64,000 nt of DNA from positions 2,418,001 through 2,482,000 of the forward strand of contig CP042428.1 of assembly GCA_024207135.1 (NCBI GenBank), read 5' to 3'. Origin of the DNA: Arthrobacter sp. C2 (GTDB lineage Bacteria > Actinomycetota > Actinomycetes > Actinomycetales > Micrococcaceae). The first letter of the stretch is position 1. Every line of letters begins with the position of its first letter. The notes beneath the pieces were generated by a model. It had not been told where the DNA came from. It saw nothing but the letters and a program-made list of their open reading frames with translations, and searched no databases. Positions 15,801 to 42,475 of the stretch are shown one piece after another. A program made the translations under genes and the position numbers.

Positions 15801-16686
15801 CCTCACCGGTGCCCAGCTCAAGGACATCCTCGAGGAGCAGTGGCAGCCCGAGGGATCCTCGCGCCCGAAGCTGCACCTGGGCATCTCCGCGGACCTGGCC
15901 TACAGCTATGACCCGGATGCCGCACGGGGAGAGCACATCAAGTCCATGACGTTCAAGGGCGAGGAAGTCACCGCGGAGCAGGTCTTCCGCGTGGCGGCCA
16001 ACTCCTTCCTGGCCGAGGGCGGGGACAACTTCACCACCTTCGCCCAGGGCGCCAACGCCGCCGACAGCGGCCAGATCGACCTGGTCGCCGCCGTGGAGTA
16101 CTTCAAGGCGCACCCGCTGGTCGACCCCGCCCCGCTGGGCCGCACCGTGGTGGCGGGCACCGAGTGGGCCACGGTCGACCTCGAAGCAGCCACCGTCACG
16201 CAGGGCGAAACCCTCAAGGCCGAGGTCACCGGGCTTGCGGAGGGCATGCGGATCTCCGCGGTCCTGCACTCGGACCCGATCGAAGCGCTCGAGATCCCCG
16301 CGGCCAACGCCGAGGGCGAAACCGCGTTCGAGATCGCGGTTCCGGCCGACTTCGAGACCGGCGCCCACACGCTGCTGGTCTCGACCGTGGGCCACGAGGA
16401 CATCGCCGTCGAGGTCGAGGTTGCGGCCGCGACCGCTCCGGGCGAGGAGCCTGCACCGAGCGAAACTCCCGCAGCGGAGGATCAGGAGCCTTCCAAGGCA
16501 CCTGTCGGACCGCAGGCCAACGACGGCGACGACGAGCCGGAAGCTGCTGCACCCCAGCCGAACGGCGACCTGGCCAACACCGGTGCCACCGTCGGCGTGA
16601 TCGCCGGTGCCGGCGCACTGCTGGCTGCGGCCGGCGGGTTCTTGCTCTGGCGTCGCCACCGCGCAACGGTGGACAGCGCCGAGTAG
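12850..16686 (+). CDS. Secreted choice-of-anchor-I / 5'-nucleotidase fusion with LAxTG wall anchor
   Basis: A 1278-residue surface protein. A Sec signal peptide (cleavage near ASSAAAG, residue about 37) is followed by a beta-propeller of the 'choice-of-anchor I' type (about 40-570; PEPENLAIG, GPEGLAFIP). Next comes a calcineurin-like phosphoesterase domain (about 575-850), with metal ligands in INDFHGR, AGDNIG, GNHEFD and SGHTHQSYD, and then a 5'-nucleotidase C-terminal domain (about 890-1080; NPGGLRADL). A Pro/Glu-rich linker leads to LANTG (about 1241), a hydrophobic helix and RRHR. It should hydrolyse extracellular nucleotides or other phosphodiesters for phosphate or nucleoside salvage. 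The ribosome binding site is weak. It is monocistronic. Confidence 0.92.
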   Translation: MSRTGRPSRRLTRASAAIAALALAGSTFYASSAAAGIVPDPITHSAKGAGLELSAVGSYETGTFDKSAAEIVTYHAASKRLFVVNAQAGAVDVLDIADPTKPTKLYSISGSGIANSVTVRADGLGAIALESSTKTAKGSLLFFDATADQAKVLGSVEVGPLPDMVSISADGNYAVVANEGEPADDFSTDPEGSVSVVTLPAKLASPAQSAARTATFHEFEAGGSKKLPAEVRIFGKTPHGEDNPVSRNLEPEYIAIDGNTAYAALQEANAIAEIDLPTATVTAIRALGFKDHSLPGNGLDASDKDGKIDIRTFEGLKGAYMPDGINAYTTAGGITYLVTANEGDAREFGGYEEGTRVKDLGQDGLAPVCEDSPAAGLLADTDLGRLNVTTASGLNADGSCYEELVAFGSRSFSIWDTNGKQVFDSGDDFEQITAEANPGFFNSNHSESNLEGRSEDKGPEPENLAIGTIGESTYAFIGLERVGGVMVYDITKPTDSTFVTYVNNRDFSESVEDGGNLAAAGDLGPEGLAFIPAEGSPTGAPMLAVGNEVSGTTTLFSITGDAVPAPEPQKPASTSIQVLGINDFHGRIEANGSEAGAAVLGGAVKELSEATPNTLFVSAGDNIGASTFTSFSQQDNPAIDALGAAGLDVSVVGNHEFDAGFDDLLNRVIPRYATATGENGADLALGANVYQKGTKTPALGEYAIREVDGVKVGFIGTVTESTAAMVSPNGIKDIEFGDQLEAANRVAEQLTDGQDANGEADAIVLLTHDGSAVDTCEAIATEKTTYGELVRKASPKIDAIFSGHTHQSYDCSFPVEGWAAGLERPVVQSHQYGTTLGALALEVDPETKDVLSLDAELLALTTTDEAGETTANHEALASVGKIVEKATAEAEVAGAVRVGEISADITRGGTEGSDRGVESSLGNLVADMHLWSTSNESFGGEKADIGIMNPGGLRADLLFGKEGTVSYQDATSVQPFGNTLITQDLTGAQLKDILEEQWQPEGSSRPKLHLGISADLAYSYDPDAARGEHIKSMTFKGEEVTAEQVFRVAANSFLAEGGDNFTTFAQGANAADSGQIDLVAAVEYFKAHPLVDPAPLGRTVVAGTEWATVDLEAATVTQGETLKAEVTGLAEGMRISAVLHSDPIEALEIPAANAEGETAFEIAVPADFETGAHTLLVSTVGHEDIAVEVEVAAATAPGEEPAPSETPAAEDQEPSKAPVGPQANDGDDEPEAAAPQPNGDLANTGATVGVIAGAGALLAAAGGFLLWRRHRATVDSAE

Positions 16687-38437: not shown

Positions 38438-38986
38438 CTACGACAAGCATTGGAATCCGCCGAGAAGCCCGAGTAGCGCCCCCGTGTACCGGACCGACTG
38501 CGGTGTGCTCGGCATAGAACGCCACTGAGTTCCAGGGTAAACAACGCTGACCTTCACGGAATACTCGGCAGGCGGGGACAGCAAGTTCAAGACCAAGCCA
38601 AGCAGACTGTCGAGAAGTCCCGGAACAACAGTTATCTGTCGCTCGGTTTGGAGTGGCAGAGTCCCTGCTGCCCCTCCCACCTTCTGCATGACAATTTCAT
38701 ATTTCGCACCGGGCGGCAACGACGCACTCGTGTTCCAAGAAACATGTGCCTTATCGGTCCCGAGTAGACCGCCCGCCTGGGTTTGACAGGCAAGTGAGTT
38801 GGGAGCAGGTAAGGTCCCGGCAGAGAAGTGTGCCTGAGCTACCTCTGCGTCCATCCACGCTGCCTCTGTCACTAAGGGTTGCACCAAGGAAGCAACAAGT
38901 CCGGAGGAGACGACAAAGACCGAGCAGATGGTCAAGGCAACTCGCCGCCTTTTCCTATCCCGGTGCGAGGCCATGCGATTCAGCAT
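38438..38986 (-). CDS. Exported protein with SipW-type signal peptide
   Basis: A 182-residue protein. A basic start (MASHRDRKRRR), a hydrophobic run and AAWMDAEVAQAHFSAGTL mark a SipW/TasA/CalY-type signal peptide with its conserved post-cleavage segment. The mature part has a fibronectin-like look (AHVSWNTSASLPPGAKYEIVM, EYSVKVSVVYPG). It overlaps the signal peptidase gene by seven bases. The start could be this ATG or one four codons later. It is last in the four-gene locus and probably a surface or fibre accessory protein. Base composition looks lower in GC than the neighbours (by eye). Confidence 0.75.
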   Translation of the reverse strand: MLNRMASHRDRKRRRVALTICSVFVVSSGLVASLVQPLVTEAAWMDAEVAQAHFSAGTLPAPNSLACQTQAGGLLGTDKAHVSWNTSASLPPGAKYEIVMQKVGGAAGTLPLQTERQITVVPGLLDSLLGLVLNLLSPPAEYSVKVSVVYPGTQWRSMPSTPQSVRYTGALLGLLGGFQCLS

Positions 38987-40179
38987 CCTCGGCTCCTCCG
39001 CTTTTTGGCGAAGACGGCCAAAACGAGACCGAATACTATTGCGCCCACCGCTGCCAGCAAGGGCACTATCGGGTTTGCGCCAGTTGGGGGCAAGGTACCG
39101 ATCGGCCGAGGGGACGAAGCGACTTCGTCTCCTGAGCCCGACGCGTGCACCTGCAGGCGCACCAACTCGTCGCCGGCATCTGCCGGGCCGTCCATCGGCA
39201 GCCACAGATCAAATAGCAACCAGCGCTCCTCTTCCGCGGTCATGGCCGTGAGCTGACGCTTCATTCCGTCGACTGCAACCAGACCAGACGTTTGGACCTC
39301 GATGACGTTACCGCCGCAATTGCCCTTGACCCACCGCTGGTCGCAGGATCGAATATCCGTCTTCAGCCCCATACGTGCGTTCCCAGCACCCAGCAACTCG
39401 ATCTTGACTTCCCCGGATGCTCTCTGCGTAGTTGTAACGCCGACCTGCCATTGCACGGGGTCACCGGGAGCCAGCTGAGCCATGGCCGTTTCATCACCGA
39501 TCGAGATGATTGTCAGTTGCCCGCTGCTGGAGGCGACTTCTGTGACCGTCGGGGCGGCGCCGGCCAAAGCCAGGTCGAGGACAATGGGAGCGATCAACAC
39601 GATCAGCCCAAGCTGCGAGAAATTGTTTGGTGGTTCCCGTCGGGGAATAGGGTCTTCTTGCAAATCGGTGTCGTCCTCCGACGGATCCCGTGGCCAGAAA
39701 GCCCATGTGACCAATGTCGAGGCGCCGATCGTGAGGACGGCCATTACCCACGGATTCGATAACCAAATGACACCGTATGCCAGATTGGGTACCGAAGCGA
39801 GGACAAGCCGAACAGTGTTGACGGTGTAGGGGAATGGGTCTTCGGCCTCGTTGGCGTCGCCCTTCATGGTGATGATCCGCTCGGTACTCAATGGCACCTC
39901 GGCTACGGACGTCACCCGATGCGTGATGGGCAGAGCAGCCGGGCGATCCACCGTCACTACGTCTCCGACTTTAATCTCGGTCGCCGGGATTTCCCGAACC
40001 ACGGATAGGGAACCCGCCGGAATCGTGGGACTCATGGAACCGGTCTTGAACATTATCAGGGTGATGTTGAATATGAAGGCCAAAGCGACAAATGCCAAGC
40101 AGATGACTCCACCCAATGCGGCCAGGTTCAACGCAGCACCACCTATGAACTGCCCGACGCCCTTGACCCGTCTGCCCAC
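38980..40179 (-). CDS. ER-type signal peptidase I fused to an LPxTG-anchored extracellular domain
   Basis: A 399-residue protein from a GTG with AGGA eight bases upstream. N-terminal half (about 1-165): helix, catalytic Ser in TGSMSPTIPAGS, THRVTSV with the His that replaces Lys in SipW/ER-type peptidases, MKGDANEAED, and a second helix. This should cut SipW-type signal peptides. C-terminal half (about 190-399): a helix (LGLIVLIAPIVLDLAL), an outer domain (VQWQVGVTTTQRASGEVKIELLG), then LPPTG, a hydrophobic helix and KKRR. The joining of a peptidase to a sortase substrate is unusual; I know of no standard family with this layout. It is coupled to its neighbours. Confidence 0.85.
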   Translation of the reverse strand: MGRRVKGVGQFIGGAALNLAALGGVICLAFVALAFIFNITLIMFKTGSMSPTIPAGSLSVVREIPATEIKVGDVVTVDRPAALPITHRVTSVAEVPLSTERIITMKGDANEAEDPFPYTVNTVRLVLASVPNLAYGVIWLSNPWVMAVLTIGASTLVTWAFWPRDPSEDDTDLQEDPIPRREPPNNFSQLGLIVLIAPIVLDLALAGAAPTVTEVASSSGQLTIISIGDETAMAQLAPGDPVQWQVGVTTTQRASGEVKIELLGAGNARMGLKTDIRSCDQRWVKGNCGGNVIEVQTSGLVAVDGMKRQLTAMTAEEERWLLFDLWLPMDGPADAGDELVRLQVHASGSGDEVASSPRPIGTLPPTGANPIVPLLAAVGAIVFGLVLAVFAKKRRSRGC

Positions 40180-40180
40180 G

Positions 40181-40786
40181 TCAGGTTCCTGCGGGATCGG
40201 TGGTCGCCTGGAACGTCCACTGTCCGTCGAGCGCGGTGCCTTGGGCCTCGTTAGGTGCATTCGGGGGCAAAGAAACTGCGAAACAGTAGTTGACGGGCGA
40301 TGTCCCTGCCGCTGGCAACGTGGCTTTTGTGGCGGCACCCGACGTCAGCTTCGACTTCAGACCGACCACCGCTGTCCCCTCGGCGAACGCACCTGCGTTG
40401 CATGTCGTGCCCGCGATCTTGGCGACACCATATTCAAGGTACGCACCCAGCCCGTTTTCATTGCCCGAATGGCCCGTTAGTTGGATGGAGCCACCAACAC
40501 TCTCACTTTTAGTCTTAACGGAGTACAACGCGTAGACCGTTGCACCGGGGACCATGGAATTCGCAGTCAGCGTGAAAGCCAATGGTGCTCCGGGCGCGCT
40601 TGGATGATCACTGTAGTCCGTGCCGTTCGTGCTGCCGATGATGGAAAAGGTCCCTGCTTTGAACTCACCCGACGCGTGTTCCTTGTCGGTCCATGCGGCC
40701 AGCGTCGCCGTAACACCGAGGCCAAGGACAAGCCCGCCCGCGAGAACTGCTCGCAGGCGGGTAAAACGGGAGCCTTCTCCCTGCAC
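40181..40786 (-). CDS. TasA/CalY-like fibre protein with SipW-type signal
   Basis: A 201-residue exported protein. RAVLAGGLVLGLGVTATLAAWTDKEHASGEF (in two parts) is a SipW-type signal and cleavage zone. The mature part is beta-rich (SIQLTGHSG, LEYGVAKIAGTTC, FAVSLPP) and has two cysteines. The GTG start at 40786 has GGGAGAG seven bases upstream and gives the same N-terminal length as the paralogue; an ATG five codons earlier has no site. It lies one base before the peptidase gene. It is likely a fibre subunit or minor component. Confidence 0.82.
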   Translation of the reverse strand: MQGEGSRFTRLRAVLAGGLVLGLGVTATLAAWTDKEHASGEFKAGTFSIIGSTNGTDYSDHPSAPGAPLAFTLTANSMVPGATVYALYSVKTKSESVGGSIQLTGHSGNENGLGAYLEYGVAKIAGTTCNAGAFAEGTAVVGLKSKLTSGAATKATLPAAGTSPVNYCFAVSLPPNAPNEAQGTALDGQWTFQATTDPAGT

Positions 40787-40807
40787 TAGATGCTCTCCCA
40801 TTGCTGG

Positions 40808-41407
40808 CTATGACACAGACTGGCCGACGAATTCCCAGGTGGCAGTGGCGGATGTGTCCTGGATAAGGTCTTCAGCAGCTGTGACCTGAACACACAGGAA
40901 TGCATCAGCGCCAGGCTCGCCGGAGACGTCGCTCTTCGTCAGGTCGAAAGTTGCCACGCCGGTGGCCGCACCAAATGCAGTTCCTGGTGGGACGATTACC
41001 GTACCAGTGGCCTCGGGCTTGCAGTCCGTCAAAGATGGCACCTGCACGATGGCGTAGCTGAGCTGGTCAACAGCGGTTCCCGAACCGAGCGCCGAGGCGA
41101 CGTTCACCTTGGCATTGTTGGTGGTTTCCTCATCCAGATGCAATACGAACGGCGCTGCAACTGTGTCTTCCGGGCTCATCGATCCGGGTTCGACTGCAAA
41201 GCTCAACGACGCCGCAGCCCCCGAAGCATGATCGGTGAAATTGATGCCGTCAACGCTGCCTTGCATGTTGAAGTGACCGGTCCCGAAGACCCCTTCGGCA
41301 AATTCGGAATCGTTCCATGCCGCCAAGGTGACGGCGACTCCTACACCGAGCACCAGCCCTCCGGCTAGCACTGCGCGTACCTTGCGGTTCTTTTCCTGCT
41401 GAGCCAT
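40808..41407 (-). CDS. TasA/CalY-like fibre protein with SipW-type signal (paralogue)
   Basis: A 199-residue paralogue of the next gene and first in the locus. VRAVLAGGLVLGVGVAVTLAAWNDSEFAEGVF (in two parts) is the signal and post-cleavage motif. The mature part is acidic and beta-rich (SFAVEPGSMSPED, VATFDLTKSDVSGE), with cysteines in LTDCKPE and AFLCVQV. The site GGGGGAG precedes the ATG closely. By homology to TasA and CalY it should be exported, trimmed by the SipW-type peptidase and assembled on the surface. Its upstream region contains a 10-base inverted repeat. Confidence 0.82.
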   Translation of the reverse strand: MAQQEKNRKVRAVLAGGLVLGVGVAVTLAAWNDSEFAEGVFGTGHFNMQGSVDGINFTDHASGAAASLSFAVEPGSMSPEDTVAAPFVLHLDEETTNNAKVNVASALGSGTAVDQLSYAIVQVPSLTDCKPEATGTVIVPPGTAFGAATGVATFDLTKSDVSGEPGADAFLCVQVTAAEDLIQDTSATATWEFVGQSVS

Positions 41408-41644: not shown

Positions 41645-42475
41645 TCAGTTGGCTACATATCCATCAAGGCGGCGCAAGTAGTAGTGCATGGGGAAATGCC
41701 GGATGACACGCGGCAGGATGCGCATTGAGACCCTCGCGCAGCGTAGCACCATGCCCATTCGTCGTTGCTGGCGGGGGCCGAACTCGAACCCATACATGGT
41801 GCGCACCTGCTGGGGCAGCAACCCGATGGTCATCAGCCGCACCAGCGGCATCGCCGCTCGGATCCACAGCGGCGCACGCTTGGCTGCCAGCAGCTCATGA
41901 GCCACCGCTCGAATCTGAGGATCAGCCCGCAGCTGATCCGTTGTCGTCGCCCAGTAGTCGGCGAAGTCGGCGCGGGTCGCAGGCCACAGGTGTGCGGGCA
42001 TGCCCAGCTCGGTCCCCAGCTGCGCGTACTCGCGGTACAACGCCTCGGCCGTCTCCTCGTCCAGCGGAGGGAAGACAGCGTGCTGGATCTGCATCGCGGA
42101 GTCGTAGAGCGTGGCGGCAACCCACAACTGGAGCTTCGGATCACGGGCCGAATACGCCGGATGCGATCCATCCTTCGCAGCAGGGGCCCTGACCGGCGCG
42201 TGCGCCGCGTGCACGACCTCCCGCACCCTGGCCCGCTGCGCGTCGGTGCCGTTGCTCAGGGCGTAGATGTAGGTCAGCGTGCCGTTGAGGCGGCCGAGCG
42301 GATTGGCGGCGAAATTCGAGTGCCGAGCCACGCCGTGGCCGACACCTGGCATCGCCAGCTGCATGAGGATGGCGCGTCCGCCACCGAGCAGGTAGACGGC
42401 CTCGGGGGCAAAGCGCGAAAGCACCGACTCGGGACTCGCTGGTGCACCCCGCATATCGGTCGTTCCCGCTGCCAT
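41645..42475 (-). CDS. DUF2236 / MpaB-family oxygenase-like protein
   Basis: A 276-residue protein. VYLLGGGRAILMQLAMPGVGHGVARHSNF, GRLNGTLTYIYALSNGT, LQLWVAATLYDSAM and the C-terminal MYGFEFGPRQQRRMGMVLRC fit DUF2236, a haem-containing latex-clearing/MpaB-like family. Members include rubber oxygenase Lcp. The substrate is unknown. It lies 7 bases after the CMD/AhpD-like gene, so the two are probably one transcript. The start is the ATG, which lies near the stop of that gene, and no long leader exists. Confidence 0.8.
   Translation of the reverse strand: MAAGTTDMRGAPASPESVLSRFAPEAVYLLGGGRAILMQLAMPGVGHGVARHSNFAANPLGRLNGTLTYIYALSNGTDAQRARVREVVHAAHAPVRAPAAKDGSHPAYSARDPKLQLWVAATLYDSAMQIQHAVFPPLDEETAEALYREYAQLGTELGMPAHLWPATRADFADYWATTTDQLRADPQIRAVAHELLAAKRAPLWIRAAMPLVRLMTIGLLPQQVRTMYGFEFGPRQQRRMGMVLRCARVSMRILPRVIRHFPMHYYLRRLDGYVAN

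What the first reader, a model, noticed from the sequence alone, without database searches (positions are those of the whole stretch)
38980..40179. Signal peptidase fused to a sortase substrate domain
One polypeptide joins an SipW-type peptidase (TGSMSPTIP...THRVTSV) to an outer domain ending in LPPTG, a helix and KKRR. If a sortase acts on LPPTG, the outer domain would be cut from the peptidase and attached to the wall, so one gene would make both an enzyme and a surface protein. I know of no standard annotation for this layout. The coding frame is continuous from 40179 to 38980 with no stop.
Basis: partly seen in the sequence, partly recalled or inferred. Interest (0 to 1): 0.75.

Follow-up and report, generated by a model that had tools for sequence, protein, structure and literature searches.

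The report
Signal peptidase fused to wall-anchor protein
A bacterium makes one chain that joins a specialised signal-cutting enzyme to a surface protein with a cell-wall attachment tail; related bacteria have the same fusion or the same two parts as neighbouring genes, and the chain is probably cut back into two proteins at a signal peptide kept at the join.

Summary
Window 40179-38980 (-) is one 399-residue frame: ER-type/SipW signal peptidase, a beta-sandwich outer domain, LPPTG, a hydrophobic helix and a basic tail. It is not an error: 41 of 80 homologous loci kept from genome contigs carry the fusion in one frame (three named families); 21 loci encode the two parts as adjacent genes, 14 of them overlapping by 4 nt. 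The change between fused and separate happened repeatedly.

LPPTG lies beyond the outer domain, so sortase alone would not detach that domain from the peptidase. The join holds what looks like an internal signal peptide (AxA after a hydrophobic core in 34 of 40 fusions, as in 18 of 21 separate genes). Cleavage there would free the outer domain for attachment by the genome's single class E sortase.

The operon also encodes two SipW-type proteins; one was modelled and resembles TasA and archaeal bundling-pilus subunits. The outer domain is distantly related to them by profile, not by the fold search. Best reading: a TapA-like, wall-anchored base for TasA-like fibres, made as a polyprotein with the fibre-specific peptidase. 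No cleavage, sorting or fibre was tested. A new variant of the sipW-tasA kind.

The parts
40808..41407 (-). SipW-type secreted protein 1 (199 aa; signal ..LAAWNDSEF), likely TasA-like fibre subunit
   Evidence: TIGR04088 34.0 bits, cut-off 19; its family is homologous to that of protein 2 (hhalign 100%)
40181..40801 (-). SipW-type secreted protein 2 (206 aa; signal ..LAAWTDKEH), likely TasA-like fibre subunit
   Evidence: TIGR04088 42.5 bits; AlphaFold model mean pLDDT 89; Foldseek ranks 7ueg bundling pilus (E 1.4e-5) and 8aur TasA fibre (E 1.6e-4) first and second
38980..40179 (-). Fused gene: SipW-type peptidase + internal signal peptide + outer beta domain + LPPTG sorting signal (399 aa)
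39685..40179 (-). SipW/ER-type signal peptidase half, residues 1-165; S48, H87, D108 and D114 invariant in 35 aligned fusions
   Evidence: TIGR02228, alignment A1, Foldseek to human signal peptidase complex chain 7p2q_A, E 6.6e-4
39556..39684 (-). Linker and likely internal signal peptide, residues 166-208: hydrophobic core, then A204-L205-A206 and A206-G207-A208 as possible cut sites
   Evidence: predicted helix 190-204, at low confidence (block means pLDDT about 46-53)
39094..39555 (-). Outer beta-sandwich domain, residues 209-362, with W244, C279 and C288 invariant in A1; no Pfam match
   Evidence: distant profile relation to the SipW-type proteins
39079..39093 (-). LPPTG sorting-type motif, residues 363-367
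38983..39078 (-). C-terminal hydrophobic helix and basic tail (KKRR), residues 368-399
38438..38986 (-). Fourth gene (182 aa), overlaps the fused gene's stop by 7 nt; N-terminus ..TEAAWMDAEV resembles SipW-type signals but gave no TIGR04088 hit
   Evidence: sequence; no family at E<=1 for the frame given as 38438-38995; proteins picked at the same place by a motif rule in 20 loci including the window

Best explanation
The gene is the third of a four-gene sipW-tasA-type operon. It encodes a polyprotein: a SipW-type peptidase with its catalytic residues kept, then a signal peptide retained inside the chain, then a TasA-related wall-anchor domain with a sorting signal. Proposed order: (1) the chain inserts with the peptidase domain outside and the linker inside [inferred from hydrophobicity and, in most relatives, charge]; (2) a signal peptidase (one of two LepB-type enzymes or the SipW half itself) cuts at the internal AxA site and separates the two products [inferred]; (3) the class E sortase joins the outer domain to the wall at LPPTG [inferred]; (4) SipW cuts the two SipW-type neighbours, which polymerise as TasA-like fibres [inferred from homology and one predicted fold]; (5) the wall-anchored domain, with its new N-terminus free, serves as fibre base or nucleator, as is proposed for TapA in Bacillus [inferred]. 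Fusion would give one anchor per peptidase and place both at one site.
For: Same fusion in 41 of 80 kept loci. In 21 loci the outer half is a separate gene next to sipW that begins, by eye, with an ordinary signal peptide, 14 of them with a 4-nt ATGA overlap; the window's own genome has such a separate pair at a second locus. AxA after the hydrophobic core: 34 of 40 fusions (27.2 expected from shuffles, P 0.007), 18 of 21 separate genes (12.2 expected), against 7 of 22 C-terminal helices (9.0 expected) and 4 of 41 TM1 segments (2.2 expected). A motif [LIV][PAS]x[TS]G after the domain in 41 of 41 fusions (L032 left out as a duplicate, window included), 23 LPxTG and 9 LAxTG. Sortase present in 21 of 21 fusion genomes examined, only one in 11. 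Streptomyces SrtE1 can recognise Ala or Pro at this position (PMC5148588, passages). Profile relation of outer domain to subunit 2: hhalign 84%, score 38.7 against at most 15.2 in 40 column shuffles. Subunit 2 model matches bundling-pilus and TasA-fibre structures. Locus L034 adds a further SipW-type protein to the same chain (591 aa), as a polyprotein would allow.
Against: No cleavage, sorting or fibre was observed. The AxA excess over shuffles is modest and rows are related. The helix at the join is modelled at low confidence. In the window and its two nearest relatives the linker is acidic (3, 1 and 3 R/K against 8, 5 and 8 D/E), which weakens the topology argument there. The six best-scoring anchors of this genome (L094-L099) use LAxTG; among the printed tails LPPTG and LPNTG occur only at the two sipW loci. 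The full-length model's Foldseek list shows no TasA or TapA in the 50 rows printed; the outer half draws generic beta-sandwich hits. The profile link to subunit 1 alone is weak (7.8%). Neither profile finds TasA or TapA by sequence in the PDB set. The internal signal lacks the A[AFW]WxD pattern of SipW substrates, so SipW may not cut it.
Confidence: 0.55

Rival explanations
1. The chain is not cut at the join. The sortase attaches the far end to the wall, so the peptidase is tethered between membrane and wall and hands freshly cut subunits to the attached base domain, as a fixed assembly site.
For: Fused and separate states changed repeatedly: at least 10 label changes on the tree without two frame-broken rows, and one fused clade is rejected, which may mean that physical linkage is useful.
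Against: The join keeps a signal-peptide shape and AxA at the rate of the separate genes, which an uncut chain would not need; the stretch between peptidase and domain varies from 30 to 75 residues over 40 fusions, as a spacer without a fixed structural role would.
Confidence: 0.2
2. The C-terminus is only a membrane anchor: the sortase does not use LPPTG, and both parts stay in the membrane.
For: Class E sortases are described as using LAXTG (PMC5148588, passages); the six best-scoring anchors elsewhere in this genome are LAxTG; the motif is at the TIGR01167 cut-off. One fusion (L064) carries LSASG and one (L025) LAVSG.
Against: G367 is invariant and T366 kept in 90% or more of 35 fusions. 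The named nearest relatives carry LAATG and LAPTG with one sortase each, so one sortase per genome meets either form in close relatives; SrtE1 can recognise both.
Confidence: 0.15
3. Two products come from one frame by internal translation start: the outer half is also made alone from a start codon in the linker.
For: In the window a TTG (39663-39661) lies 11 nt after GGAGG, ahead of the hydrophobic core.
Against: The two nearest relatives have no start codon in the linker; a start with a ribosome-site-like motif was seen in 4 of 39 fusions whose linker could be read, the window included, and 13 of 39 had no start codon there at all.
Confidence: 0.07
4. The frame is a sequencing or assembly artefact that joined two genes.
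For: Two-gene homologues exist; two loci (L057, L072) look like fusions with a broken frame.
Against: 41 of 80 kept loci are fused in one frame; within the genus 4 of 15 genomes, the window's included, match P0001 almost end to end.
Confidence: 0.01

Closest known systems
Bacillus subtilis tapA-sipW-tasA operon (SipW, TapA, TasA)
   Same: Dedicated signal peptidase beside its fibre-subunit genes; an accessory protein encoded next to sipW with overlapping stop and start (PMC10151520, passages) thought to anchor TasA and to speed or nucleate fibre assembly (PMC9674648, passages).
   Different: Here the accessory domain is fused to the peptidase in one chain, comes after it, and carries a sortase-type C-terminus; no sequence match to TapA or TasA in the PDB set.
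Clostridium perfringens sipW-bsaABCRSD operon
   Same: SipW is needed for secretion and polymerisation of TasA-like BsaA (PMC7395162, passages).
   Different: The authors predicted no LPXTG-like motif in BsaA and saw no difference after deleting the neighbouring sortase gene (same passages); the passages seen describe no fusion.
Class E sortase substrates of actinobacteria (LAXTG)
   Same: Motif, hydrophobic helix and basic tail; the genome's one sortase is class E, NF033747 242.8 bits against cut-off 160.
   Different: LPPTG rather than LAXTG in the window, and the signal peptide lies inside a longer chain.
Bacterial polyproteins split at an internal signal peptide (Bradyrhizobium fbcH, cytochrome b/c1; recalled, search found no paper)
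   Same: Two proteins made as one chain and separated by signal peptidase at a retained signal peptide.
   Different: Here the chain itself contains a signal peptidase.

Membership tests
ER-type / SipW signal peptidase (TIGR02228) | Score above the curated cut-off | tested here: met
   58.4 bits, cut-off 51.85
ER-type / SipW signal peptidase (TIGR02228) | Catalytic Ser and His with conserved Asp (roles recalled) | tested here: met
   S48, H87, D108, D114 invariant in 35 of 35 aligned fusions
ER-type / SipW signal peptidase (TIGR02228) | Cuts SipW-type signal peptides | not testable with these tools
   Two TIGR04088 proteins lie directly upstream; cutting needs an experiment
Bacillus SipW equivalog (NF046067) | Score above the curated cut-off | tested here: not met
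   38.7 bits, cut-off 190
LPXTG-type sortase substrate | Motif, hydrophobic helix, basic tail at the C-terminus | tested here: met
   LPPTG, helix, KKRR; motif of this kind in 41 of 41 fusions, two of them cut by contig ends soon after it
LPXTG-type sortase substrate | TIGR01167 score above cut-off | tested here: inconclusive
   15.5 bits, flagged over the cut-off of 15.9 only with its frame neighbours; not listed for P0001 at E<=1
LPXTG-type sortase substrate | A sortase in the genome that accepts the motif | tested here: inconclusive
   One class E sortase; motif is LPPTG, class E usually LAXTG
LPXTG-type sortase substrate | Signal peptide ahead of the exported domain | tested here: inconclusive
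   Internal hydrophobic segment with AxA and N-terminal signal-like start in 21 separate homologues; no trained signal-peptide predictor was available and the model is weak there
TasA / camelysin (PF12389, TIGR04088) | Family match of the outer domain | tested here: not met
   0 of 58 outer domains match any Pfam family at E<=0.01; no TIGR04088 hit in P0001
TasA / camelysin (PF12389, TIGR04088) | Distant profile relation of the outer domain to SipW-type proteins | tested here: met
   hhalign 84% to subunit 2's family and 74.6% to both families, above 40 shuffles and the reversed profile; only 7.8% to subunit 1's family alone
TasA / camelysin (PF12389, TIGR04088) | TasA-like fold of the outer domain | tested here: inconclusive
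   Beta-sandwich model, pLDDT mostly over 90, but no TasA or TapA in the 50 hits printed for the full chain
TapA | Sequence relation to TapA (6HQC and 6QAY named in PMC10151520) | tested here: not met
   Profile A2 lists no TapA chain in the PDB sequence set at E<=10

The most novel reading that the evidence does not exclude
A signal peptidase and the wall-attached base of the fibre it serves are made as one chain that the peptidase cuts itself, or that stays uncut as a membrane-to-wall assembly site; in one genome a further SipW-type protein is joined to the same chain. That would be a self-contained secretion and assembly polyprotein.
Probability: 0.25. Interest if true: 0.75.

Novelty: new variant of a known kind. 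Interest (0 to 1): 0.5.

Why it matters
The TasA-like fibre work that I saw is on Bacillus and Clostridium (passages). This operon type, found here in several families of actinobacteria, pairs the same kind of peptidase with a sortase-type anchor and so suggests how such fibres could be fixed to the wall. The repeated change between fused and separate peptidase and anchor gives natural variants in which the need for the internal cut, the role of class E sortase and the fibre base can be tested directly. It also shows that a chain whose only NCBIfam model over its cut-off is 'signal peptidase I' can hide a surface protein.

Tried and rejected
Sequence error: rejected by the recurrence of the fusion. 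Internal translation start: seen with a ribosome-site-like motif in 4 of 39 readable linkers, not in the nearest relatives. One single origin of the fusion: the tree needs 11 changes of the label (4 forced by well-supported branches; 10 changes without L057 and L072), and holding the 41 fused rows together is rejected (p-AU 1.1e-64), on a 167-column tree whose bootstrap had not settled. Naming the outer domain by sequence: no Pfam family for 58 members, no PDB sequence relative. The sortase count (21 of 21 genomes) has no matched control of genomes without the fusion, so it shows presence, not association. Literature: the searches listed no paper whose title or abstract start describes a signal peptidase fused to a sortase substrate; some searches showed 15 of 16, 8 of 11, 5 of 6 and 6 of 8 papers; subscription papers are mostly not held and bioRxiv preprints not at all.

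Rows dropped or relabelled: A1 uses the window and 34 of the 41 fused loci (left out: L019, L020, L051 as near copies, L032 as a duplicate, L035 and L039 as cut by contig ends, L034 as the triple fusion). The outer-domain profile has 64 rows; A2 uses the window and 57 of the 62 references listed. A3 uses 59 of the 108 SipW-type proteins listed there. The tree left out L032, L054 (cut by the contig end) and two second copies (L030, L090), and L073 and L090 were relabelled as separate by hand. In one search one fusion (L039) was skipped for want of the landmark motif, and the C-terminal-helix control used the 22 tails longer than 34 residues. The motif rule missed two cut tails and made false calls on L040, L057 and L072; one search lists the motif row by row and replaces it. 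In one search the window's fourth gene was translated in a wrong frame by my mistake; that comparison was set aside.

Full report
WHAT IS THERE. Window 40179-38980 on the minus strand translates without a stop into 399 residues. Residues 1-165 hold an ER-type/SipW signal peptidase (TIGR02228, 58.4 bits, cut-off 51.85; the Bacillus SipW equivalog is far below its own cut-off). Residues 209-362 form a beta-sandwich in the AlphaFold model, mostly above pLDDT 90, followed by LPPTG and a helix (371-398) that includes KKRR; the whole model has mean pLDDT 82.2 and pTM 0.51. The GTG start lies just after the stop of a 206-aa gene; a 199-aa gene lies before that; both have SipW-type signal peptides (TIGR04088 42.5 and 34.0 bits). 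A fourth gene starts at 38986, overlapping the fused stop by 7 nt (sequence); its N-terminus reads TEAAWMD, but no family was found for its frame.

IT IS NOT AN ERROR. A genome-contig scan found 122 relatives, of which the best 80 were kept. In 41 of these 80 loci the two halves lie in one frame (L031 and L032 are duplicates, L035 and L039 are cut by contig ends). The lineages printed with the tree place fused rows in Micrococcaceae, Microbacteriaceae and Brevibacteriaceae, with Zimmermannella faecalis and some bins unplaced. In the genus, 4 of 15 genomes including the window's own match the protein almost end to end, so the operon is patchy. Across 198 genomes drawn from the order, 44 carry the outer domain at E<=1e-5.

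TWO-GENE VERSIONS. The tree set held 41 fused rows (window included), 23 separate and 16 with no outer domain recognised. In 21 of the 23 separate loci the second gene has a start near the sipW stop; in 14 the genes overlap by 4 nt, in a different frame. The other two (L057, L072) look like fusions with a broken frame and were left unmended. The window's genome has a second sipW locus of the separate kind, with an LPNTG protein, and a third sipW gene; I saw no outer-domain match there. The label fused/other changes at least 11 times on the tree (10 without L057 and L072), 4 changes being forced by well-supported branches, and a single fused clade is rejected. So the join was made, lost or both, several times.

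THE JOIN LOOKS LIKE A SIGNAL PEPTIDE. In separate genes the second protein begins with what reads as an ordinary signal peptide, for example one ending in AWA before the domain (by eye). In the fusions the same kind of segment lies inside the chain, in a stretch of 30 to 75 residues (median 56, 40 fusions). An AxA after the hydrophobic core occurs in 34 of 40 fusions (27.2 expected from shuffles, P 0.007) and 18 of 21 separate genes (12.2 expected, P 0.004); controls gave 7 of 22 C-terminal helices (9.0 expected) and 4 of 41 TM1 segments (2.2 expected). An earlier, narrower count gave 33 of 40 against 25.3 expected. The rows are related, so these P values are too small. The model puts a 15-residue helix there, at low confidence (block means about 46-53). 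The stretch ahead of the core is basic on the whole (269 R/K against 157 D/E over 40 fusions), but acidic in the window and its two nearest relatives. The genome has two LepB-type peptidases over the TIGR02227 cut-off (132.2 and 124.7 bits) as well as the SipW half; which would cut is open. The site lacks the A[AFW]WxD pattern seen after SipW-type signals, which favours LepB.

SORTING. Counted row by row, 41 of 41 fusions carry [LIV][PAS]x[TS]G after the domain: 23 LPxTG, 9 LAxTG, the rest variants; two are cut by contig ends. Of 24 outer domains outside fusions (a second copy in L090 included), 18 carry LAxTG and 5 LPxTG; L057 has no such motif. The window's genome has one sortase, class E by NF033747 (242.8 bits). 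Its six best-scoring anchors read LAKTG, LANTG (three), LAETG and LASTG; a weaker hit, L102, reads LAMTG, and of the other hits flagged over the cut-off L101 and L103 printed no motif in my filter and L105 is doubtful. S. coelicolor SrtE1 is described as using LAXTG, yet the authors state that it can recognise signals with alanine or proline at that position (PMC5148588, passages). All 21 of 21 fusion genomes examined have a sortase, 11 just one; without a control set this shows presence only.

WHAT THE OUTER DOMAIN IS. No Pfam family matches any of 58 members at E<=0.01. Profile comparison links it to the operon's own SipW-type proteins: 84% to the second protein's family (score 38.7; best of 40 column shuffles 15.2; reversed 10.6), 74.6% to the two families together, but only 7.8% to the first alone. 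The second protein's model (mean pLDDT 89) matches the Pyrobaculum bundling pilus 7ueg (E 1.4e-5) and the TasA fibre 8aur (E 1.6e-4) as its two best hits. Against this, the full fusion model finds human signal peptidase 7p2q for the first half and generic beta-sandwiches besides, with no TasA or TapA among the 50 rows printed, and sequence profiles find neither in the PDB set. I therefore call the outer domain TasA-related with moderate confidence, and not a member of a named family.

HOW IT PROBABLY WORKS. In B. subtilis, SipW cuts TasA and TapA; TapA is thought to help anchor TasA to the wall and may give the first donor strand, and each TasA subunit passes its N-terminal strand to the next (PMC9674648, passages). 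tapA and sipW overlap by stop and start (PMC10151520, passages). A base protein fixed to the wall by its C-terminus with a free mature N-terminus would fit that polarity; for the fused form, this needs the internal cut. That is inference. L034 (Zimmermannella faecalis) carries a 591-residue chain in which a further protein with AAWTD, alike to the fourth gene's family (best E 1e-5), follows the LPATG helix; one genome only.

STANDING. Observation confirmed; mechanism corrected; new variant of the sipW-tasA kind. The ten paper searches showed no listing that describes this fusion; only passages of five papers were read, the last of which is not used in the argument.

Noticed in passing
L034:4912-6684 (+): Triple fusion in Zimmermannella faecalis: SipW, outer domain with LPATG and helix, then a further SipW-type protein (AAWTD) in one 591-aa frame.
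   Followed up: partly
L120 (G000:C1:1825500-1831500): Second sipW locus of the window's genome with the two parts as separate genes and an LPNTG anchor; a third sipW locus lies in L121.
   Followed up: partly
L057 and L072: Adjacent frames that look like a fused gene with a broken frame; left as they are.
   Followed up: no
window 39663-39661 (-): TTG in the linker 11 nt after GGAGG, a possible internal start not shared by the two nearest relatives.
   Followed up: yes
window 16570-16662 (+): LANTG sorting signal in a 1314-residue open frame, one of several LAxTG anchors of this genome.
   Followed up: no
L075, L076, L084, L087, L093: In Dietzia, Williamsia, Hoyosella and Rhodococcoides sipW is followed by a long secreted protein (538-597 aa where complete) with a SipW-type-looking signal.
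   Followed up: no
window 41645-42475 (-): Gene upstream of the operon matches MPAB_Lcp_cat (PF09995, E 4.2e-62).
   Followed up: no
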